The notes under the pieces are model-generated. The model made no database searches, had not been told where the DNA came from, and was given only the letters and a program-made list of their open reading frames with translations. This document shows, piece by piece, positions 394 through 9,016 of a stretch of 9,117 nt of DNA. How positions within the stretch are numbered: position 1 is the stretch's first letter; each line of letters opens with the position of its first letter. This DNA is from Ardenticatenales bacterium (lineage in GTDB: Bacteria > Chloroflexota > Anaerolineae > Ardenticatenales > Ardenticatenaceae): positions 1 through 9,117 of the forward strand of contig JACCSL010000720.1 of NCBI GenBank assembly GCA_013812995.1. Reading direction: 5' to 3'. The position numbers and the translations under genes were made by a program.

Positions 394-948
394 TTATGTC
401 ATGGTAAGCGTCTGTTGATCCTTGCGCTGTATCAGCACTGTGACGAAGGCCCCGCAGAGCAAGGAAAGCACGGAGGGTACCAGCAGCGGTCCCAGCAGGA
501 GGCCGCGCAGGATGTCGAGCACCGAGAGACTCACCCGGCCCCCGATCATCAGGGCCTGCCAGAACTCTCCCATCCAGAGGCTGCCGCTTGATAGAAAGCC
601 TGGTGCAAAGAGGATAGAGAGAACCGTCCATACCAGACTGGCCTGCCCCATTATCAGGATTACGCTAATGACCAGCGTGCCAACCATGAGCCCAACAACT
701 CCAAGGCGAAGGTTATAACGCAGGGCATCGGCAAAGGCCGCATCGACCACACGGGTCGTAAAGCCGCTGGGCGCGTACTTCATCGGTGCCCGGTGAAAAA
801 GGGCATCGACAGCCTGTAGCTCGGAGAAGGCGAGGGCGCAGTCCGGGCAGTGAGTCAGGTGGAGCGTCAGGCGGTTTGCGTCCGCTGCCTCCAGGGCTTC
901 ATCCAGTTGGAGAGAAATCAGTTCCAGAATCTCGTCGCAGTTGTTCAT
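394..948 (-). CDS. Putative zinc-finger anti-sigma factor, membrane-anchored
   Basis: The 184-residue product has an N-terminal cytoplasmic domain with the zinc anti-sigma signature H30-x3-C34-x2-C37, preceded by Cys4 and helices of the ZAS type. A long hydrophobic region follows: a clear membrane segment at about 82-101, a hydrophobic stretch at about 104-118, and a second strong segment at about 143-173. The protein ends in a short charged tail. In this family the N-terminal domain holds an ECF sigma factor inactive until a signal disrupts the complex. The gene starts 9 nt after the stop of the sigma gene (TAA at 958-960, ATG at 946-948). The intervening bases provide only a weak GAGA ribosome site, which fits translational coupling. 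More than one membrane segment and almost no extracytoplasmic domain suggest sensing within the membrane rather than by a large external sensor; that is inference. The signal is unknown. Confidence 0.85.
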   Translation of the reverse strand: MNNCDEILELISLQLDEALEAADANRLTLHLTHCPDCALAFSELQAVDALFHRAPMKYAPSGFTTRVVDAAFADALRYNLRLGVVGLMVGTLVISVILIMGQASLVWTVLSILFAPGFLSSGSLWMGEFWQALMIGGRVSLSVLDILRGLLLGPLLVPSVLSLLCGAFVTVLIQRKDQQTLTMT

Positions 949-957
949 TTTTTTCTC

Positions 958-1560
958 TTATGCCTCTACCTTTTCCTTGGCCTGAGCCATCAGGGGGATC
1001 AGATCGGGCGCATGGGCTCGCATCAGCTCAGCCAACTTCAAGCGGGCGCGGTGTAGCCGGCTCTTCACAGCACTCAGGCTCAGCCCCGTTGCCTCACAAA
1101 TCTCCTGGTAGGACAGATCATTCCAGTAGTGCATGATGAGGGGAACCCGATAGCCAGGTTCCAGGTATTCGAGCAATTGTTGGACCCGCGCCTCCTGCTC
1201 CGAATCCAGCAACTGTCGTTCGGGTTGCGGACGATCACTAACCAGCGGTTGCCACTCCGGCATCTCTTCAATATCGACGGTCTGGAGACGGCGACGACGC
1301 AGGCGGTCAATGCAGTGATGGGAGGCGACGGAGAGCACCCAGGAGGAGAGTTTGCGGTCAGGATCATAGGTATGCAGGCGACGATAGATCTTGACGAAGA
1401 TCTCCTGCGCTGCATCCTCTGCCTCGGTGCTGGTTCCGAGCATTCGATAGCAGAGATTATAAACCGGGTTTTTATACGCCTCGACCAGTGAGGTGAAGGC
1501 GGTGCGGTCTCCCGCAAGGGCACCCTGGACCCAGGCTTTTTCTTGGTCAACCGATATCAT
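958..1560 (-). CDS. RNA polymerase sigma factor, ECF (sigma-70 region 2 and 4) family
   Basis: The 200-residue product has the compact ECF layout. Sigma region 2 lies at about residues 22-91, with the AEDAAQEIFVKIYRRL core-binding helix at 47-62 and the SSWVLSVASHHCIDRLRRRR -10-recognition segment at 72-91. An acidic, proline-containing linker follows. Region 4 lies at about 128-175 and contains a helix-turn-helix (LSYQEICEATGLSLSAVKSRLHRAR). Length and order match RpoE-like sigma factors. It would direct RNA polymerase to a small regulon when released by the anti-sigma factor encoded next in the operon. The ATG at 1560 has AAGGA 9 nt upstream. It is divergent from the kinase operon, so it may control itself and possibly its neighbours, but no duplicated promoter motif was seen to prove that. 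The ECF subgroup cannot be named from sequence alone. Confidence 0.93.
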   Translation of the reverse strand: MISVDQEKAWVQGALAGDRTAFTSLVEAYKNPVYNLCYRMLGTSTEAEDAAQEIFVKIYRRLHTYDPDRKLSSWVLSVASHHCIDRLRRRRLQTVDIEEMPEWQPLVSDRPQPERQLLDSEQEARVQQLLEYLEPGYRVPLIMHYWNDLSYQEICEATGLSLSAVKSRLHRARLKLAELMRAHAPDLIPLMAQAKEKVEA

Positions 1561-1729: not shown

Positions 1730-1761
1730 TGGCTGGCCTGTGCTGACGGGAAAGGTTGAGG

Positions 1762-2388
1762 ATGATCGCACCAATCTACATTGCTATTGAGGGAGTCATT
1801 GGCGTCGGCAAGACGAGCCTCGCTACCCTCCTCCAAGACGAATACAACGCTCAAGCCGTGATGGAAGTCTTCGAGGAAAATCCTTTTCTTTCCTCTTTCT
1901 ATCACGAGCCTGAGCGCTACGCCTTCCAGGTGCAGGTGGCCTTTCTCCTGAGCCGATACCAGCAACAGAGGGTCATTGGGGAGCAGGCGGGGCGGCGCTC
2001 CCTGGTCAGCGACTATCTGTTCGCGAAGGACCAGCTCTTTGCCAGACTGAATCTGTCGGGCGACGAGTGGGAGACCTACCACCAGTTGTACCATGTGATG
2101 GCGGAGCGGATCATCAGGCCGGACCTCGTGGTGTACCTGCGAGCCAGCACGGACACACTCATGGAGCGCATCACGAGGCGGGGGCGTCCCTACGAGAAGA
2201 ACATGGCGCGCCAGTATATCGAGCGACTCGCGGCGACCTACGAGGCATTCTTTGCCACCTACAATCCCTCACCCTTGCTCATTATTGACAGTGATGGGCT
2301 GGACTTTGTGGGTTGCCAGGGCGATCTCAGATATGTCCGACAGCAGCTTGACGCGGCGCTGGGCAGAGTACAGGTCGTGATCTCATGA
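1762..2388 (+). CDS. Deoxynucleoside kinase, deoxyguanosine kinase-like (first of pair)
   Basis: This 208-residue enzyme of the dCK/dGK family phosphorylates deoxynucleosides to 5'-monophosphates with ATP, for salvage of DNA precursors in the cytoplasm. Visible features are the P-loop G11-x2-G14-x-G16-K17-T18-S19, the acidic segment EVFEENPFLSSFY at about 35-47, S83-D84-Y85 where relatives carry Asp-Arg-Ser, and the arginine-rich LID segment RITRRGRPYEK. An SDY-type motif in place of DRS is typical of Bacillus-type deoxyguanosine kinases, which suggests a purine (dGuo) preference; that is inference. The ATG at 1762 is chosen over an upstream in-frame TTG at 1756 because AAAGG lies 6 nt ahead and the protein then begins just before the first beta strand. 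The stop overlaps the next start as ATGA, indicating translational coupling with the second kinase. Confidence 0.88.
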   Translation: MIAPIYIAIEGVIGVGKTSLATLLQDEYNAQAVMEVFEENPFLSSFYHEPERYAFQVQVAFLLSRYQQQRVIGEQAGRRSLVSDYLFAKDQLFARLNLSGDEWETYHQLYHVMAERIIRPDLVVYLRASTDTLMERITRRGRPYEKNMARQYIERLAATYEAFFATYNPSPLLIIDSDGLDFVGCQGDLRYVRQQLDAALGRVQVVIS

Positions 2389-3020
2389 AACACTTCGTTG
2401 CTATTGCGGGCAATATTGGCGTCGGCAAATCATCGCTGACCCGGCTGCTGGAAGCGCGGTTGGGGTGGGAGCCTTTCTACGAGGCGGTGCAGGACAATCC
2501 CTATCTCTCCAATTTTTACGAAGATATGGAACGATGGGCCTTCCACAGCCAGATTTTCTTTCTCAGCCGCCGCCTCCAACATCATCGTCAAATCTGCTCC
2601 CATCCCGTCTCGGCCATTCAGGATCGCTCCGTTTATGAGGATGCCGAGATTTTTGCGCAAACGCTTTTCTTGCAGGGCAAGATGGACCGCCGCGATTATA
2701 CCGTTTACCGTGACCTGTACGACTCCGTCAGCGCTTTCCTGCCACCCCCCAATCTGATTGTCTACCTGCGCGCGAATGTGGACACCCTGCTGGGCCGCAT
2801 CGCGAGGCGGGGACGGGAATTCGAGCAGGGCATCTCGCGCAGCTACCTGGAACAATTAAACGAGCTTTATGACAGTTGGATTGAGCAGTTCGAGCTCTGT
2901 CCCGTCCTGACCATTGCAGCGGATGAGATAGACTTTGTGGCCCAGGAAACCGACCTGTCGTTCATCACAGGCCAAATTCTTGAGCAGTTGCACCGTGAAA
3001 ACGTGATGCATATTGCGTAA
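2385..3020 (+). CDS. Deoxynucleoside kinase, deoxyadenosine/deoxycytidine kinase-like (second of pair)
   Basis: This 211-residue paralogue of the preceding kinase has P-loop G9-x2-G12-x-G14-K15-S16-S17, the segment EAVQDNPYLSNFY at 33-45 and the family-defining D80-R81-S82 (QDRSVYEDAEIF). Its LID motif is RIARRGREFE in the C-terminal half. The DRS motif followed by Y-E-D is the form seen in bacterial dAdo/dCyd kinases, so the two adjacent enzymes plausibly divide the substrates between dGuo and dAdo/dCyd, like the adjacent dgk and dck genes of Bacillus. Its ATG lies inside the stop region of the upstream gene (ATGA at 2385-2388), so it depends on that gene's transcription and probably its translation. 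Substrate assignment is inferred; the kinase family is secure. Confidence 0.9.
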   Translation: MKHFVAIAGNIGVGKSSLTRLLEARLGWEPFYEAVQDNPYLSNFYEDMERWAFHSQIFFLSRRLQHHRQICSHPVSAIQDRSVYEDAEIFAQTLFLQGKMDRRDYTVYRDLYDSVSAFLPPPNLIVYLRANVDTLLGRIARRGREFEQGISRSYLEQLNELYDSWIEQFELCPVLTIAADEIDFVAQETDLSFITGQILEQLHRENVMHIA

Positions 3021-3084: not shown

Positions 3085-3825
3085 ATGCGCCGAGACATTA
3101 CTGGCTGGTACAGCGAGCGACTGTACATGAATATGCCCATCGTGGCCTATGGTCACTCGGGTTACCCCATTCTCATGCTGCCGACGGCTGCCGCCGACTA
3201 TCTCGAGTATGAGCGCTTCTATCTGATTGATGCCATCAAGCACCACATCGAGGCGGGCCACGTTCGCGTCTACTCGGTCAACAGCGTGAATCGGCATAGT
3301 CTACTCAACGATAGCGCATCTCCGGACATCAAGATGGAGTACCAGAGCCGCTACGATAGCTACCTGATCAATGAGGTTCTGCCCTTCATTCGCCATGACT
3401 GTGGGAGTGCCAGCGTTCTGCCCCTCGTCTCCGGCATCAGCCTGGGGGCGTACCTGGCGGCCAACACCTTCTTCAAACACCCGGACCAGTACGGCGGGGC
3501 GATTCTCCTTGCGGGTAGCTACAACATTCGTCACTACCTGGATGGGTACTACGACGACAATAGCTACTTCAACAACCCGATGGATTATCTCCCGAACCTC
3601 AGCGACAACTACCACCTGCCCATTCTCCAGAGTGGCACGCGCAAGATCATCATCTACACCGGCCAGGGCGCGTACGAGGCCCCGGAGCGCGCCTACGATC
3701 TCTCGCGCGTGCTCAGCGGCAAGGGCATCCCGCACGAGCTGGATGTCTGGGGCCACGATGTCAACCATGACTGGCCCTGGTGGCGCAAGGCGATGGATTT
3801 CTACGTTTCTCGCCTGTTCGGGTAA
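3085..3825 (+). CDS. Alpha/beta-hydrolase esterase, COG4947-like (intact copy)
   Basis: The 246-residue protein has an alpha/beta-hydrolase layout: an early beta strand region (IVAYGHSGYPILMLPTAAADYLEYE, about 19-43), a nucleophile elbow G117-I-S119-L-G121, and a C-terminal histidine segment with H228 within HDWPWW. The length is normal for cytoplasmic esterase-D-like hydrolases and there is no signal peptide. It should hydrolyse an ester or related acyl bond; the substrate is unknown. Opposite the N-D-P of the neighbouring relic, this copy reads GQGAYEAPE at about 193-201, so Glu198 rather than Asp may complete the triad. The start has AGGAG at 3071-3075, 9 nt ahead of ATG. It lies 64 nt after the kinase pair and opens the amide-ligase neighbourhood, where a hydrolase could release, transfer or proofread an activated intermediate. 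Its cluster role is inference. Confidence 0.82.
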   Translation: MRRDITGWYSERLYMNMPIVAYGHSGYPILMLPTAAADYLEYERFYLIDAIKHHIEAGHVRVYSVNSVNRHSLLNDSASPDIKMEYQSRYDSYLINEVLPFIRHDCGSASVLPLVSGISLGAYLAANTFFKHPDQYGGAILLAGSYNIRHYLDGYYDDNSYFNNPMDYLPNLSDNYHLPILQSGTRKIIIYTGQGAYEAPERAYDLSRVLSGKGIPHELDVWGHDVNHDWPWWRKAMDFYVSRLFG

Positions 3826-3838
3826 GGAGTGGTAGGGC

Positions 3839-4151
3839 ATGAGGCGGGAGTATTACCGGTGGTGACATTTCGAGCTGGGTGCGCGGCTACCACGATCAGA
3901 ATCCCTACTTCAATAATCCGGTCGAGTACATCAAGAACGCCCATCACCCGCACCACCTCGCCCAGGTGCGCCAACCGGATATCATTCTGGTTGTCGGCCG
4001 GAATGATCCTAACTTCGGTCACAATCAATACTTTTCCACTCTGCTCTGGGAGAAAAACATCTGGCACGCCTTCCGCGTGTGGGATGGGTGGGCGCACGAT
4101 TGGCCCTGGTGGCGACACATGTTGAGCCTGTACATCGGAGGCCCGGACTGA
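3839..4151 (+). pseudogene. Second COG4947-like esterase, disrupted by an internal frame-breaking deletion
   Basis: Two pieces of an esterase gene abut here. An ATG at 3839, preceded by AAGGAG 10 nt upstream, opens a frame reading MRREYYRW that stops at 3863-3865. This matches the start of the neighbouring esterase (MRRDITGW). The downstream piece is in another frame, from about 3861 to the stop at 4149-4151. It encodes GDISSWVRGYHDQNPYFNNPVEY and ends with AHDWPWWRHMLSLYIGG, aligning with the C-terminal half of the intact esterase (SYFNNPMDY, NHDWPWWRKAMDFYV). The region corresponding to about residues 9-145, including the catalytic serine elbow, is missing. A GTG at 3879 could still start a 90-residue fragment, but it would lack the nucleophile. 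The relic keeps N-D-P and H-D-W, consistent with an ancestral Asp-His pair. Loss of function is close to certain; a sequencing or assembly deletion cannot be excluded. Confidence 0.8.
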
Positions 4152-4156
4152 GCACC

Positions 4157-5002
4157 GTGATCTCGTGGCGCTTGCTGCCTGGCCCGGAAGGGCTGGTAGC
4201 AACGCGGCACCCCGAGGAGGTGGCAACGCTGGCCGAGGCGGCATTCTTCCTGCCGCACGGAGCCTATACGACCCTACGCACCTATGGTGCAACGGGCGTT
4301 CTCCTGCTCGATCAGCACATGGACCGTCTGGAGGAGAGCGCGGGACTAATGGGCTGTTCCGTGCAATTGGATCGTGCGGGTGTCCGGCGCGCGTTGGGGG
4401 GAATAGTGCATTCCCAGCGCGGGGAAACCGAGAGAGAAAACCGGCTGCGTCTGACCGTAGATTGCTCGGCGCATCCTGGGGAACTTTGGCTCTCAATGGA
4501 ACCCCTACCCTTGCTTGCACCAGACCTTTATGAGCAGGGTGTAGCCGTTGTAACTCAGACGATGCAGCGAGCGAACCCGCGCGCCAAGGACAATGCGTTT
4601 CTCACCACGACAAAGGCCGAGCGTGCCCGAATTAGCGGCCGCATCAATGAGGTGCTGATGGTGGGCACAGAGGGCGAGGTGTTGGAGGGGTTGAGCAGTA
4701 ATTTCTTCGGCATCCGCGCGGGAACGCTCTACACAGCGGAAGAGGGCATTCTACCAGGGCTCACGCGCTCGCTTATTCTGGAGGAGGCCGCACAGGGAGG
4801 AATTCCGGTACGTCTGGAGTCCCTCCAGGTAGGCGCGCTGTCGGGGCTGGACGAGGCGTTTATCTCCAGCAGCAGCCGGGCTGTCCTGCCCGTGGTCGAG
4901 ATGGATGGACAGGTGGTGGGAAATGGGCAGCCTGGATCTATCACCCGCGAGATCAGCCGGCGCTATGACGCGCGGGTCCAGCAAGAAATCGAGTGGCTCT
5001 GA
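4157..5002 (+). CDS. Class IV PLP-dependent aminotransferase or aminodeoxychorismate lyase-like enzyme
   Basis: The 281-residue fold-type IV PLP enzyme is related to branched-chain aminotransferase, D-amino acid aminotransferase and 4-amino-4-deoxychorismate lyase. Visible elements are GAYTTLRTYG at 35-44, the L-D-x-H54-x2-R57-L motif, the probable PLP-binding Lys144 (RAKDNAF, aligned with the IKSLN lysine of D-amino acid aminotransferases), and E177-G-L-S-S-N182, whose glutamate contacts the pyridine nitrogen. Length is normal for the family. It probably transfers or eliminates an amino group of a small substrate; transaminase and lyase cannot be separated by eye. The GTG at 4157 is a convenient start, but GGAGG (4137-4141) is better spaced for an in-frame CTG at 4148. 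It follows the esterase relic by 5 nt, so the truncated gene may still matter as leader sequence. In context it could supply an amino or keto building block for the ligases. Confidence 0.82.
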   Translation: MISWRLLPGPEGLVATRHPEEVATLAEAAFFLPHGAYTTLRTYGATGVLLLDQHMDRLEESAGLMGCSVQLDRAGVRRALGGIVHSQRGETERENRLRLTVDCSAHPGELWLSMEPLPLLAPDLYEQGVAVVTQTMQRANPRAKDNAFLTTTKAERARISGRINEVLMVGTEGEVLEGLSSNFFGIRAGTLYTAEEGILPGLTRSLILEEAAQGGIPVRLESLQVGALSGLDEAFISSSSRAVLPVVEMDGQVVGNGQPGSITREISRRYDARVQQEIEWL

Positions 5003-5078
5003 CACCGTCAAGCAGGCACGATACCCACCAGAGCCAGACCATTCCAGTCGTACGTTCGCCTTTTAGAAAGGAGCCTTC

Positions 5079-6050
5079 ATGGCAGATAAAGATGTCAGAC
5101 GCATAGGATTGTTTGTGGGCCGCGAGTGGTCCTGGCCGCCCGCCTTCATTGATGAGGTCAACAACCGGGACGAGGGGGTTGTCGCCGAGTATGTCAAGGT
5201 CGGGGGCACGCAGCAGGATGAGCCCTGCCCGTACGATGTCATCGTGGACCGCATCTCGCACGAGATTCCTTACTATCGCTCGTACCTGAAAAACGCCATC
5301 CTTCAGGGGAGCTACGTTATCAACAATCCGTTTATGTGGGCCTCGGACGACAAGTTCTTCGAGGCGGGCCTGGCAACCAAGCTCGGCGTGGCAAGCCCCC
5401 GCACGATTCTGTTGCCCAACAAGGATTATATCCCTGGCATTGTCGCCGAGTCGCTGCGGAATCTGGAATACCCGCTCAACTGGCAGGCGATTGTGGATTA
5501 TGTTGGCCTCCCTGCGATTCTGAAGGACGCGCATGGTGGCGGCTGGAAGGAAGTGTACAAGATCGACAACGTCGATGAACTGCTCTTCCGCTACAACCAG
5601 TCCGGCACGCTACAGATGATCCTCCAGGAGTTCATCGAGTGGGATCAGTATGTGCGCTGCCTCTGCATCGACCAGAGCGAGATTCTCCCGATGAAGTATG
5701 ACCCGAAGGAGCGCCGCTACCATGTCGAGGACGATCACCTGAGCCCTGAGCTAGAGGCACGGGTGGTGGGCGATGCGCGCAAGCTCTGCCAGGCACTGGG
5801 CTATGACATGAACACGGTCGAGTTCGCGGTGCGCGACGGGATTCCCTACGCCATCGACTTTATGAACCCCGCACCGGACATGGACATTTACTCCCTGACG
5901 CCCTTCTACTTCGACTGGGCCGTGAAGCACATGGCCGATATGTGCATCAAGAAGGCGAAAACGCGGTCGCAGGAGCAGAAGAATGACTTCCGCTGGGCTC
6001 GATTCCTCCCCAAGGCGGAGGAGGAGAAGAAAGTCGCCGCCAAGCGGTAG
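5079..6050 (+). CDS. ATP-grasp carboxylate-amine ligase (RimK/GshB-like)
   Basis: The 323-residue protein has an ATP-grasp arrangement: an N-terminal pre-grasp domain (GLFVGREWSWPPAFIDEVN), a central DDKFFEAGLATKLGVASPRT segment (90-109), the ATP-binding ILK149DAHGGG155W strand and glycine loop, LQE184F for adenine/ribose contact, and metal-binding residues around E248, D260 and N263 (IDFMNPAPDMD). Such enzymes activate a carboxylate as an acyl phosphate and join it to an amine, as in glutathione synthetase or RimK. The lysine- and arginine-rich C-terminal tail (about 300-323) is predicted to be flexible. It starts at an ATG with AAAGGAG 5 nt upstream, 76 nt after the aminotransferase, and no terminator is seen between them, so co-transcription is likely. 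The substrate pair is unknown. Family assignment is strong; the specific role within the cluster is inferred. Confidence 0.87.
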   Translation: MADKDVRRIGLFVGREWSWPPAFIDEVNNRDEGVVAEYVKVGGTQQDEPCPYDVIVDRISHEIPYYRSYLKNAILQGSYVINNPFMWASDDKFFEAGLATKLGVASPRTILLPNKDYIPGIVAESLRNLEYPLNWQAIVDYVGLPAILKDAHGGGWKEVYKIDNVDELLFRYNQSGTLQMILQEFIEWDQYVRCLCIDQSEILPMKYDPKERRYHVEDDHLSPELEARVVGDARKLCQALGYDMNTVEFAVRDGIPYAIDFMNPAPDMDIYSLTPFYFDWAVKHMADMCIKKAKTRSQEQKNDFRWARFLPKAEEEKKVAAKR

Positions 6051-6075
6051 AATCCGATCCCTTGTAGCGTAGAGC

Positions 6076-6125
6076 GGCGCTGCATGTGCCCCGCACCATC
6101 GGGGTGCGGCAGCGCCTTTTTGTTT
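6076..6125 (+). terminator. Intercistronic Rho-independent terminator or attenuator
   Basis: A compound hairpin has an outer stem (6076-6082 with 6110-6116, GGCGCTG/CAGCGCC), an 8-nt one-sided bulge, and an inner stem (6091-6097 with 6103-6109, CCGCACC/GGTGCGG). TTTTTGTTT follows immediately. It starts 26 nt after the ATP-grasp stop and ends only 15 nt before the next ATG. That placement would stop most upstream transcription just before the circularly permuted ATP-grasp gene, acting either as the true end of the operon or as a partial read-through valve. Confidence 0.82.
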
Positions 6126-6140
6126 CAGAAGAGGACTCTG

Positions 6141-7496
6141 ATGATCGAAGAGGCAATCCACGCGTATCACGACCTGTTTGATGACCAGGTGGCCGCCGAG
6201 AACTTCGGGCTGTTGAAGGAGAAGATGGAGCAGCGCCATCTCTCCTTCGGGGAGCGCCTGCTCTGCACCGTTCTGCGGCCACACTTCCTCACGCCCCATG
6301 AGTACCAGAAGATGAAGGAAGCATGCGAGACGCTGCTGGGCGCGTTTGACCGGCTCTACGAGACGATGGTCGAGGCTCCCGCCCTGCGCACCGAGGTGGG
6401 GCTGACCGAGCTGGAAGAGGGCGCATTTGCCCTCAATCCGGGCTACCGCACCCCGACGCCGACGGGCCGCCTGGACTCGTTTCTCTCCCACGAGCCGGAG
6501 GGAGACCCCACGATTCACTTTGTCGAGTACAATGCAGAAACCCCGGCAGGGGCAGGGTACGAGGACGTTCTGAGCGAGGCGTTCTTCGAGCTGCCCGTGA
6601 TGAAACAGTTCCAGAAACAGTACCGCGTCACGATGGTTCCCCTGCGACGGCGCGTTCTGGATACGCTCCTTGCCATGCACCGGGAAGCGCGCGGCCAGGA
6701 GCCCCCAACCATTGGCATCGTGGACTGGGAGGATGTTCCCACCACGAACGAGTTCGAGATCTTCAACGAGTTTTTTCTGTCGCAGGGCGTGGATTCCTTC
6801 ATCACGGCCCCGGAGCGCATGGAATATGACGGAAAGACGCTGCGCGGCGACGGAAAGCCCATCCACATCATCTACAAGCGCGTGCTGGGGAGCGAGTTGC
6901 TCCAGCGCTATGGGTTGGAGCACCCGATCCTGTATGCGCTGCGCGACGGGAATGTGACGATGGTCAATCCGTTCCGCTGCAAACCACTCCACAAGAAGAT
7001 GAGTTTTGCCCTGCTGAGCGATGAACGGTACAACGATTTGTACACGGTGGAGCAGCGGCACGCCATCGCGATGCACATTCCCTGGACCCGCAAGCTTGGG
7101 GAGCGCAAAACGCTTCTGGATGGCGAGCCGATTGACCTTCTTCCCTACATCGCGGATCACAAGGATGAGTTTGTGATGAAGCCCAATGATGAGTACGGCG
7201 GCAAGGGCGTCATCATCGGCTGGGAGAGCAGCAGCGAGGAATGGCACGCAGCCATGCAGGAGGGGCTGAAAGAGCCCACCATCATACAGCGCAAGGTGAA
7301 GATCGCGCGCGAGGATTTCCCCTCCTACATCGATGGTCGCCTGAACATCTCCGAGCGCCTTGTAGACCTGGACCCCTATCTCTTCGAGGGAAATGCCATG
7401 CACGGCTTCCTGACGCGCCTGGCAGCCACGACGCTGCTCAACGTGACAGCGGGAGGTGGCTCGGTCACTCCCACCTTTATCATCGAGAAGACGTAA
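6141..7496 (+). CDS. Circularly permuted ATP-grasp family protein, putative amide ligase
   Basis: The 451-residue product matches circularly permuted ATP-grasp proteins related to the glutathionylspermidine synthase type, in which the ATP-binding loop comes after much of the catalytic core. Visible motifs are GRLDSF (109-114), VEYNAETPAGAGYED (128-142) with metal/substrate-binding candidates E129, N131 and E133, NPFRCKPLHKK near the middle, FVMK347PNDEYGGKG356 as nucleotide-binding lysine and glycine loop, IIQRKV (381-386) as the adenine-contact strand, and a conserved-looking C-terminal GGGSVTPTFII. It is expected to form an amide bond using ATP; the substrate is unknown. The ATG at 6141 has AGAGGA 5 nt upstream. 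An in-frame upstream start would run through the terminator hairpin and is rejected. Because the hairpin sits directly before it, expression depends on read-through or an unseen promoter. Confidence 0.85.
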   Translation: MIEEAIHAYHDLFDDQVAAENFGLLKEKMEQRHLSFGERLLCTVLRPHFLTPHEYQKMKEACETLLGAFDRLYETMVEAPALRTEVGLTELEEGAFALNPGYRTPTPTGRLDSFLSHEPEGDPTIHFVEYNAETPAGAGYEDVLSEAFFELPVMKQFQKQYRVTMVPLRRRVLDTLLAMHREARGQEPPTIGIVDWEDVPTTNEFEIFNEFFLSQGVDSFITAPERMEYDGKTLRGDGKPIHIIYKRVLGSELLQRYGLEHPILYALRDGNVTMVNPFRCKPLHKKMSFALLSDERYNDLYTVEQRHAIAMHIPWTRKLGERKTLLDGEPIDLLPYIADHKDEFVMKPNDEYGGKGVIIGWESSSEEWHAAMQEGLKEPTIIQRKVKIAREDFPSYIDGRLNISERLVDLDPYLFEGNAMHGFLTRLAATTLLNVTAGGGSVTPTFIIEKT

Positions 7497-7551
7497 TGCG
7501 TAAAACGTAAAACGGCATAAGCTGTCATCCGCCATAAGTGAATGTCGTAAA

Positions 7552-7757
7552 TTACGTTTTACGTTTCTGCTTCTGACGGAATTTGTGGTATGGAAGATTG
7601 GGAAGCGTGCCATGCGAGCCCTCTCCCCCACGTCGTTTCGCTCCGTGTCCCCTCTCCCGAAATCGGGAGAGGGGCGGCCGAAGGCCGGGGAGAGGGCCAC
7701 CACGCAGAGCCACCCCTCAACCACAAATTCTATCAGAACCAGTTACGTTTTACGTTT
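7552..7757. repeat. MITE-like palindromic element with terminal inverted repeats and flanking direct repeats
   Basis: The core 7567-7742 (176 bp) has 23-bp terminal inverted repeats (7567-7589 and 7720-7742) matching at 20 of 23 positions, with core TTCTGACGGAATTTGTGGT on the left. Perfect 15-bp direct repeats TTACGTTTTACGTTT abut both ends (7552-7566 and 7743-7757). Inside are an 11-bp stem (7618-7628 with 7687-7697, GCCCTCTCCCC), a perfect 12-bp hairpin (7649-7660 with 7663-7674, CCCCTCTCCCGA) and a small CGGCC-GAA-GGCCG hairpin (7675-7687). No coding capacity is present, as expected for a non-autonomous element moved by a transposase encoded elsewhere. The folded RNA might also reduce transcription leaving the upstream gene. 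Confidence 0.75.
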
Positions 7758-7816
7758 TAACCAATCCTTCCACGCTATTACCTCCATCTACAGCTTTGTT
7801 CCACCTCCCATGGGGG

Positions 7817-7845
7817 TTGTCAGCGCCTTTCAAATCCGTTACGCT
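7817..7845 (+). promoter_or_regulatory. Candidate sigma-70 promoter of the GCS2-family ligase gene
   Basis: TTGTCA (7817-7822, five of six consensus positions) and TACGCT (7840-7845, three of six) are separated by 17 nt. Initiation near 7852 would give a leader of about 25 nt with AAAGGAGA in front of the ATG. It lies downstream of the repeat element, so the gene could be transcribed independently of the rest of the cluster. The -10 is weak. Confidence 0.4.
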
Positions 7846-7876
7846 TCTTGCCACTACAAGGTAAAGGAGAGTCTCT

Positions 7877-9016
7877 ATGCTACCCGCTCCCTCATTGACA
7901 ATCGGGATCGAAGAAGAATATCAGATCGTTAACCCCAAAACACGGCAGTTAACCAGTTACATCACCCAGTTTCTGGATGGCGACCACACCATCCTGCGCG
8001 AGCGAGAGATTAAGCCAGAACTTCATCAGAGTATGGTGGAGTTGGGCTCGAATGTCTGCCGGAATATTCAGGAGGCACGCACGGAACTGGTCAAGATGCG
8101 GTGCATGATCAATGACCTTGCAAAGGCGCGGGGGCTCGTTATCGTCGCCAGTGGTACCCATCCTCTCTCGTTGTGGCACGAGCAGGAAATTACGCCTCTG
8201 GAACGCTACCTGGGCGTTCTGGAGGATATGCAGGAGTTGGCACGCCAGCTTCTCATCTTCGGGATGCACGTCCACATCGGCATCGAGGATCCGGAGTTCG
8301 TGATCGATGTGATGAATGTGGCGCGCTACATGCTTCCCCATATTCTCGCCCTCAGTACCTCCTCTCCCTTCTGGGAGGGACGCAACACAGGATTGAAGAG
8401 TTATCGGAGCGTGATCTTCCGACGCTTCCCACGCACAGGAATTCCCTACACCTTCTCCTCGCACGCGGAGTATGATCGCTTCGTGCAGACGCTGGTGCAA
8501 ACAGGCTCTATCCCGAATGCCTCCAAAATCTGGTGGGATGCTCGCCCGCACCACAAGTACCCCACGCTGGAGTTCCGTGTGCCTGATCTCTGCACCACCG
8601 TGGATGAGGCGCTCTGCATCGCAGCCCTTTTCCAAGCACTCGTATTGAAGTTATGGAAGATGCGCGTGGAGAATACCACGTTCCGCCAATACTCCCCTGC
8701 CCTGATTGACGAGAACAAGTGGCGCGCCGTGCGCTACGGGATCGAGGGCAAACTCATTGACTTTGGGCGCGCCGAGGAACTCCCCGCGCGTCAGCTCATC
8801 CATGAACTGGTGGAGTTTGTGGATGATGTCGTGGACGAGCTGGGAAGCCGCCGCGAGGTGGAGTATGCCTATACCATGCTCCAGCAGGGCACCAGCGCGG
8901 ACCGCCAGCTACGCGTCTTCGAGGAAAGCGGGCAGAGCCTCGAAGCGGTGGTAGATCACCTGGCAAAGGAGACCATGCGCGGCTGCTACGACGCCGAGGG
9001 CAACCCGAATATTTGA
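7877..9016 (+). CDS. Carboxylate-amine ligase, GCS2/YbdK family (glutamate-cysteine ligase-like)
   Basis: The 379-residue protein carries the hallmarks of COG2170 ligases: G10-I-E12-E13-E14 at the first strand, E48-x-H50-x4-E55 (ELHQSMVE), A91-S-G-T-H-P96, the H131-V-H133-I-G loop, and the substrate/ATP-binding stretch R223-x-H225-H226-x-x-P-T-L-E232-F-R234-V-P-D. The length is close to YbdK (about 370 residues). YbdK-type enzymes share the glutamine-synthetase-like fold and join an amino acid carboxylate to an amine, with weak glutamate-cysteine ligase activity known for E. coli YbdK; the physiological substrate here is unknown. The ATG at 7877 is preceded by AAAGGAGA (7863-7870), 6 nt away. 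It is the third amide-ligase fold in the neighbourhood, yet it is separated from the others by the repeat element and bracketed by inverted repeat copies, so it may be a recent addition. Confidence 0.9.

What the first reader, a model, noticed from the sequence alone, without database searches (positions are those of the whole stretch)
3085..9016. A cluster of three distinct amide-ligase folds with a PLP enzyme and an esterase: candidate undescribed biosynthetic pathway
Seen: motifs for an ATP-grasp ligase, a circularly permuted ATP-grasp protein and a GCS2/YbdK ligase, all on one strand with a fold-type IV PLP enzyme and an alpha/beta hydrolase. Established: each ligase family joins carboxylates to amines with ATP, and neighbourhoods mixing ATP-grasp and COG2170 ligases are known from comparative genomics, mostly without known products. 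Inference: the set makes a small peptide-like or amino-acid conjugate, the PLP enzyme providing a building block and the esterase trimming or releasing an intermediate. No carrier protein, precursor peptide or transporter is visible, which favours a free small-molecule product.
Basis: partly seen in the sequence, partly recalled or inferred. Interest (0 to 1): 0.72.

Follow-up and report, generated by a model that had tools for sequence, protein, structure and literature searches.

The report
Conserved three-ligase amide-building gene module
Four of the five genes in this Chloroflexota stretch (three amide-bond ligases and a serine hydrolase) recur together in dozens of bacterial genomes and are predicted to build and trim a small amide-linked molecule of unknown identity, while the fifth, a vitamin-B6-dependent enzyme, likely belongs to a neighbouring nucleoside-kinase cluster.

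Summary
The genes are real: 3085-9016 holds an esterase (EST), a fold-type IV PLP enzyme, a RimK/LysX/Ddl-like ATP-grasp (ATPg), a glutathione-synthetase-like circularly permuted ATP-grasp (CPAG) and a YbdK-type ligase (GCS2), all on one strand. In 100 class-level genomes (own included) ATPg occurs in 21; CPAG in 20, all among those 21; EST in 19 of the 21. In 93 deduplicated loci, EST is within 5 kb of ATPg in 78 of 88 testable loci, CPAG in 74 of 88, GCS2 in 36 of 77, mostly Chloroflexota and Gemmatimonadota. The PLP enzyme fails: 2 of 83. A same-order genome without matches to the four module families carries dNK1-dNK2-PLP contiguously, so two clusters are interleaved here. Conserved catalytic motifs and predicted folds support working ligases. 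Product and substrates are unknown. The window also has a rare esterase type beside a truncated remnant of the usual type. No description was found in the papers searched, but the key 2009 survey was not readable.

The parts
3085..3825 (+). EST, alpha/beta-hydrolase esterase of the rare 'type A'; nucleophile Ser119 in GISLG, His228 in HDWPWW
   Evidence: PF00756; Ser119 and His228 in 78 of 78 aligned ESTs
3843..4151 (+). C-terminal remnant of a 'type B' esterase (the type of the sister genus), without the nucleophile; likely a pseudogene
   Evidence: 64-65% identity over 95 residues to the EST of L026/L027; alignment
4157..5002 (+). fold-type IV PLP enzyme; likely part of the separate dNK1-dNK2-PLP cluster rather than of the ligase module
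   Evidence: PF01063; contiguous with the kinases in L133; near ATPg in 2 of 83 loci
5079..6050 (+). ATPg, RimK/LysX/D-Ala-D-Ala-ligase-like ATP-grasp
6141..7496 (+). CPAG, circularly permuted ATP-grasp of glutathione-synthetase/Gsp-synthetase-like fold (an upstream ATG at 6084 is possible)
7877..9016 (+). GCS2, YbdK-type carboxylate-amine ligase
   Evidence: PF04107, PRK13515 543 bits; nearest solved structure YbdK 1r8g
1756..2388 (+). deoxynucleoside kinase 1 (dNK1), of the neighbouring cluster
   Evidence: PF01712
2385..3020 (+). deoxynucleoside kinase 2 (dNK2), of the neighbouring cluster
   Evidence: PF01712; in 26 of 31 genomes, 19 of the 26 without ATPg
7494..7775 (.). dispersed repeat in the CPAG-GCS2 gap

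Best explanation
EST, ATPg, CPAG and, where present, GCS2 form a conserved gene module that likely makes a small amide-linked (pseudo-peptide) metabolite: the two ATP-grasp enzymes would each activate a carboxylate as an acyl phosphate and join it to an amine, GCS2 is predicted to add a further amide-linked group such as gamma-glutamyl, and the serine hydrolase is predicted to trim or release an intermediate. SHOWN: the gene linkage, the co-occurrence, the conserved motifs and the predicted folds. INFERRED: the order of steps, that the product is a free small molecule, and the hydrolase's role. UNKNOWN: every substrate. The likely core is EST+ATPg+CPAG, with GCS2 an add-on; the C26 peptidase that directly follows GCS2 in 11 Gemmatimonadota-titled loci would remove a gamma-glutamyl group. 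The PLP enzyme and the deoxynucleoside kinases likely belong to another cluster with which the module is interleaved in this lineage.
For: Co-occurrence in 100 genomes: CPAG in 20 of 21 ATPg genomes and 0 of 79 others; EST (E below 1e-20) in 19 of 21 and 1 of 79; GCS2 in 17 of 21 and 11 of 79. Neighbourhood in 93 deduplicated loci: EST 78 of 88, CPAG 74 of 88, GCS2 36 of 77, C26 15 of 75, each with a copy on the ATPg strand; median gaps 77 and 68 nt. Catalytic motifs kept in EST 78 of 78, CPAG 69 of 69, ATPg 91 of 91 (D260 89 of 91), GCS2 39 of 39 at eight checked positions. Folds. CPAG's R-x-D and E-x-N motif has the same pattern as R139, D141, E163, N165 of the pseudodipeptide ligase Cp1B, each needed for activity (PMC12568646, passages). 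No recurrent small precursor ORF: the largest small-ORF cluster covers 5 of 93 loci, on the opposite strand. C26 is by family a gamma-glutamyl-GABA-hydrolase-like enzyme.
Against: No substrate or product evidence of any kind. ATPg's nearest folds include ligases that act on proteins (RimK, LysX/ArgX with LysW) and RiPP precursors (PsnB), and D-Ala-D-Ala ligases tie with them, so a protein or peptide target is open. GCS2 is absent from 4 of 21 ATPg genomes. S8 peptidase or a second esterase adjoin many relatives (25 of 83 and 22 of 84) but not the window. 5 of 68 well-flanked loci have ATPg without any partner nearby, and 8 have EST only. G027 has ATPg without CPAG, G037 an EST without ATPg. 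Most genomes are metagenome bins; my gene caller was trained on module homologues; Fisher tests ignore kinship; loci were chosen through ATPg, so bias towards intact modules is possible.
Confidence: 0.5

Rival explanations
1. Protein or peptide modification: the RimK/LysX-like ATPg adds residues to a protein (perhaps the small conserved u9 protein or a carrier), CPAG and GCS2 extend or cap the tag, and EST, S8 or C26 remove it.
For: ATPg's best structural matches include RimK, LysX/ArgX with LysW, and the RiPP ligase PsnB; peptidases S8 (25 of 83) and C26 (15 of 75) and the small protein u9 (8 of 83) lie near ATPg; the S8 has a weak PatA-type hit (40 bits, cut-off 421).
Against: No conserved small ORF; the peptidases and u9 are absent from most loci and from the window; the D-Ala-D-Ala ligases, small-molecule enzymes, tie in Z.
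Confidence: 0.22
2. A glutathione- or glutathionylspermidine-like pathway: GCS2 makes a gamma-glutamyl amino acid, ATPg extends it, CPAG adds a terminal amine, giving a thiol or polyamine conjugate.
Against: GCS2 is missing from 4 of 21 ATPg genomes and scores below the glutamate-cysteine ligase cut-offs (352.8 vs 409, 85 vs 249.05). AdoMet decarboxylase is in 9 of 21 ATPg genomes and 19 of 79 others (p 0.105), so one route to spermidine does not track the module; other routes and uptake were not tested.
Confidence: 0.13
3. One reading: in this lineage the PLP enzyme supplies an amino-acid building block to the three ligases.
For: PLP sits between EST and ATPg, on the same strand, in the window and in both sister-genus genomes, 5 nt behind the remnant's stop codon in the window.
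Against: 2 of 83 testable loci; contiguous with dNK1-dNK2 in module-free G006; in G009 it is on a different contig from all module genes; no equivalog cut-off reached, so its substrate is unknown.
Confidence: 0.12

Closest known systems
NRPS-independent two-ligase pathways such as E-64 biosynthesis, Cp1B + Cp1D (PMC12568646, passages read)
   Different: the second E-64 ligase is an adenylate-forming (ANL) enzyme, here a RimK-like ATP-grasp; no oxygenase; an esterase and GCS2 are added
E. coli YgiC/YjfC and glutathionylspermidine synthetase
   Different: 12-15% identity; no amidase domain; polyamine link not supported
COG2308/alpha-E predicted peptide-tagging system (Iyer et al. 2009, recalled, not read)
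   Same: CPAG belongs to the same Pfam family, PF14403
   Different: alpha-E is in 1 of 100 genomes; in that genome, G060, it adjoins a weak, different CP-ATP-grasp match about 320 kb from the module's CPAG
YbdK / PRK13515 carboxylate-amine ligases
   Same: GCS2 is a clear member
   Different: the PRK13515 model names no substrate
RimK, LysX/ArgX and D-Ala-D-Ala ligases
   Different: 13-18% identity in the listed rows; below the RimK family cut-off (30.2 vs 143.4); its own conserved N-terminal motif GREWS[WF]PP

Membership tests
YbdK-type carboxylate-amine ligase (PRK13515, TIGR02050) | score above the curated cut-off | tested here: met
   543 vs 371 and 299.9 vs 176.4
glutamate-cysteine ligase equivalogs | score above the curated cut-off | tested here: not met
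   NF010043 352.8 vs 409; TIGR02048 85 vs 249.05
CP_ATPgrasp_2 (PF14403) | score above the gathering cut-off | tested here: met
   32.8 vs 32 in the window, 56.5 in the sister genus
RimK family (TIGR00768) | score above the curated cut-off | tested here: not met
COG2308/alpha-E tagging system | alpha-E partner gene beside the CP-ATP-grasp (feature recalled) | tested here: not met
   PF04168 in 1 of 100 genomes, about 320 kb from that genome's module CPAG
Glutathionylspermidine synthetase/amidase | synthetase fold | tested here: met
Glutathionylspermidine synthetase/amidase | N-terminal amidase domain | tested here: not met
   CPAG aligns only to residues 212-618 of the E. coli enzyme; Pfam shows PF14403 only
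Glutathionylspermidine synthetase/amidase | polyamine acceptor | tested here: inconclusive
   AdoMet decarboxylase in 9 of 21 ATPg genomes, 19 of 79 others
Graspetide (RiPP) cluster | conserved precursor peptide gene | tested here: inconclusive
   no small-ORF cluster in more than 5 of 93 loci (20-110 aa, E 1e-4)
E-64-like two-ligase cluster | R-x-D and E-x-N acyl-phosphate motif in the ATP-grasp | tested here: met
   R110, D112, E129, N131 in 69 of 69 rows; equivalence by motif pattern
E-64-like two-ligase cluster | ANL-type second ligase | tested here: not met
   none among the ten window proteins scanned
BCAT, D-amino-acid transaminase or ADC lyase (PLP gene) | score above an equivalog or subfamily cut-off | tested here: not met
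   PRK08320 91.4 vs 363; TIGR01122 85.6 vs 245.55; TIGR01121 79 vs 277.45; TIGR03461 42.7 vs 176.85
Known anti-phage defence systems | PADLOC model match | tested here: not met
   0 hits for the five window proteins; a relative's S8 partner matches a subtilase model at 9.3e-13

The most novel reading that the evidence does not exclude
A cross-phylum, NRPS-free amide assembly line (serine hydrolase + RimK-like ligase + glutathione-synthetase-like ligase, with optional gamma-glutamyl capping by GCS2 and decapping by a C26 peptidase) makes an unrecognised pseudo-peptide metabolite, perhaps cofactor-like, of Chloroflexota and Gemmatimonadota.
Probability: 0.4. Interest if true: 0.78.

Novelty: new variant of a known kind. 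Interest (0 to 1): 0.52.

Why it matters
A ligase set that co-occurs almost perfectly across 100 class-level genomes and spans at least Chloroflexota and Gemmatimonadota is strong evidence for a real pathway with a product I could not find described. The likely core is only three compact genes with solved structural relatives, so the product can be sought directly by expression and mass spectrometry. Separating the PLP gene removes a misleading building block from the hypothesis.

Tried and rejected
Spermidine acceptor: AdoMet decarboxylase shows no clear association (9 of 21 vs 19 of 79, p 0.105). The spermidine-synthase family matches 83 of 100 genomes (79 over its cut-off), too common and broad to discriminate.

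Precursor peptide: no recurrent small ORF. Gene fusions: three long homologues (P0048, P0085, P0172) looked at, none a fusion by Pfam; by eye they have extra tails or a repeated N-terminus. Other operonic neighbours: 39 proteins listed and read by eye, not scanned; none recurred widely. Anti-phage defence. Promoter/terminator scan: 1 and 2 sites, fewer than the shuffle means 3.3 and 5.5.

The first gene calling used longest ORFs, read only 20 loci and favoured antisense frames; it was discarded for the composition-weighted caller. EST was not folded. Structural families absent from the lists or 63 are not excluded.

Literature: ten searches; in the listings shown I saw no paper on this neighbourhood. 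Only passages of PMC12568646 were read; all other papers were seen as listings with the start of the abstract. Iyer, Abhiman and Aravind 2009 is recalled and was not held.
Full report
OBSERVATION. The window is the whole contig C253 of a fragmented assembly. ORF and family scans give, on the + strand, two deoxynucleoside kinases (1756-3020), EST (3085-3825), a fold-type IV PLP enzyme (4157-5002), ATPg (5079-6050), CPAG (6141-7496) and GCS2 (7877-9016). Two of the three ligases are ATP-grasp enzymes, so there are two ligase superfamilies, not three folds.

WHAT RECURS. ATPg had 7998 homologues among 7998 candidates scored, a capped list. Of these 100 loci, 7 whose ATPg is at least 97% identical to another were dropped, leaving 93. 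Within 5 kb of ATPg (denominator: loci with at least 2.5 kb on the expected side, or with the gene found): EST 78 of 88, CPAG 74 of 88, GCS2 36 of 77, S8 peptidase 25 of 83, a second esterase 22 of 84, another ATP-grasp 17 of 69, peptidase C26 15 of 75, u9 8 of 83, PLP 2 of 83, dNK 2 of 83. Every locus with EST, CPAG, GCS2 or C26 has a copy on the ATPg strand; S8 in 23 of 25 and the second esterase in 20 of 22. Median gaps are 77 nt (EST-ATPg) and 68 nt (ATPg-CPAG). Of 68 loci with at least 2.5 kb on both sides, 28 have EST, CPAG and GCS2, 24 EST and CPAG, 8 EST only, 3 CPAG and GCS2, 5 none of them. Independent tblastn on the 20 stretches agrees. By submitter title, the 81-row ATPg tree holds 44 Chloroflexota, 23 Gemmatimonadota, 2 Planctomycetota, one row in each of four other phyla and 8 rows in no group; titles of metagenome bins can be wrong.

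CO-OCCURRENCE. In 100 genomes (own included) ATPg is in 21, CPAG in 20, EST in 23 (20 at E below 1e-20; three weak matches dropped), GCS2 in 28. All 20 CPAG genomes have ATPg; 19 of the 20 EST genomes do (G037 does not); GCS2 is in 17 of 21 and in 11 of 79 others; Fisher p 4e-20, 3e-17 and 1e-8, ignoring kinship. ATPg lacks CPAG in G027 and EST in G027 and G039 (in G039 the contig ends near ATPg). Two of the 21 ATPg genomes (G026, G061) have only distant matches, 31-35% identical. In G009 the genes lie on separate contigs yet all are present; in G026 an EST directly precedes CPAG without ATPg (L140).

THE PLP GENE. The order dNK1-dNK2-EST-PLP-ATPg-CPAG-GCS2 is shared only with the sister genus (L026, L027). 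In G006, of the same order, 86% complete and without a match to any of the four module families, dNK1 (55.5% identity), dNK2 (57.5%) and PLP (42.5%) are contiguous (L133). dNK2 is in 26 of 31 genomes, 19 of them without ATPg, and in G017 the kinase pair and the module are on different contigs. PLP-type IV relatives occur in 30 of 31 genomes, as expected for a broad family. The simplest reading is that the ligase module came to lie around and within a dNK-dNK-PLP cluster. That PLP was recruited afterwards cannot be excluded.

THE ESTERASE SWAP. The window's EST is of a rare type (clearly nearer to only L024, L030 and L031 among 78 ESTs; two more are marginal). Right behind it lies a ~100-residue remnant, 64-65% identical to the single EST of the sister genus, without the nucleophile. 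I infer that one esterase replaced another in the same slot, which suggests that the step is needed. A misassembly cannot be excluded from one contig. The window's ATPg also does not group with the sister genus in the tree, although gene order is shared.

MECHANISM. Two amide bonds made by two acyl-phosphate-forming ligases, an optional cap by GCS2, and hydrolysis or acyl transfer by EST is the economical reading. C26, directly behind GCS2 in 11 loci, all titled Gemmatimonadota, is by family a gamma-glutamyl-GABA-hydrolase-like enzyme; this suggests, but does not show, that GCS2 makes a gamma-glutamyl bond. S8 and the second esterase never occur in the same locus among the 93 and mostly lie upstream of EST. 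A protein target for the RimK-like ligase is the strongest rival.

NOVELTY. Every family is known; I found no characterised close relative of ATPg, CPAG or EST among solved structures, and no paper describing this neighbourhood in the listings of ten text searches. The 2009 amidoligase survey, which from memory treats mixed ATP-grasp and COG2170 neighbourhoods, could not be read, so prior mention is possible.

Noticed in passing
window 7494-7775: A repeat of about 200 nt with ends rich in TTACGTTTTACG fills the CPAG-GCS2 gap; it recurs at 85-98% identity in at least 40 other places of the genome (79 matches listed, 40 of 259 first-look candidates scored). The two sister-genus loci have gaps of about 50-60 nt there.
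   Followed up: partly
window 3843-4151: Truncated type-B esterase beside a full type-A esterase: an apparent gene replacement caught in progress; the remnant's stop codon is 5 nt before the PLP start.
   Followed up: yes
L109:4796-7074; also L052, L063, L075, L083, L096, L098, L110: A small protein without Pfam match (u9, about 115-160 aa) lies upstream of an S8 subtilase that carries a C-terminal CBM48 domain in L109. In L139 a protein that looks similar by eye directly precedes CPAG.
   Followed up: partly
L049, L054, L073, L093, L094, L112, L117: A further ATP-grasp family (ATPg6; PF02222 in L049) is near the module in 17 of 69 testable loci; two copies in tandem in L049, L093, L094, L112, L117.
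   Followed up: no
L022, L056, L090, L098, L109, L139: Two GCS2 genes in tandem follow CPAG; tandem GCS2 pairs also occur in genomes without ATPg (G043, G074, G085, G088).
   Followed up: no
window 394-1560 (-): A divergently oriented ECF sigma factor and zf-HC2 anti-sigma factor pair lies upstream of the kinases.
   Followed up: no
G060:C22:216527-217862: A canonical-looking alpha-E + CP-ATP-grasp pair lies in the same genome as, but about 320 kb from, the module.
   Followed up: partly
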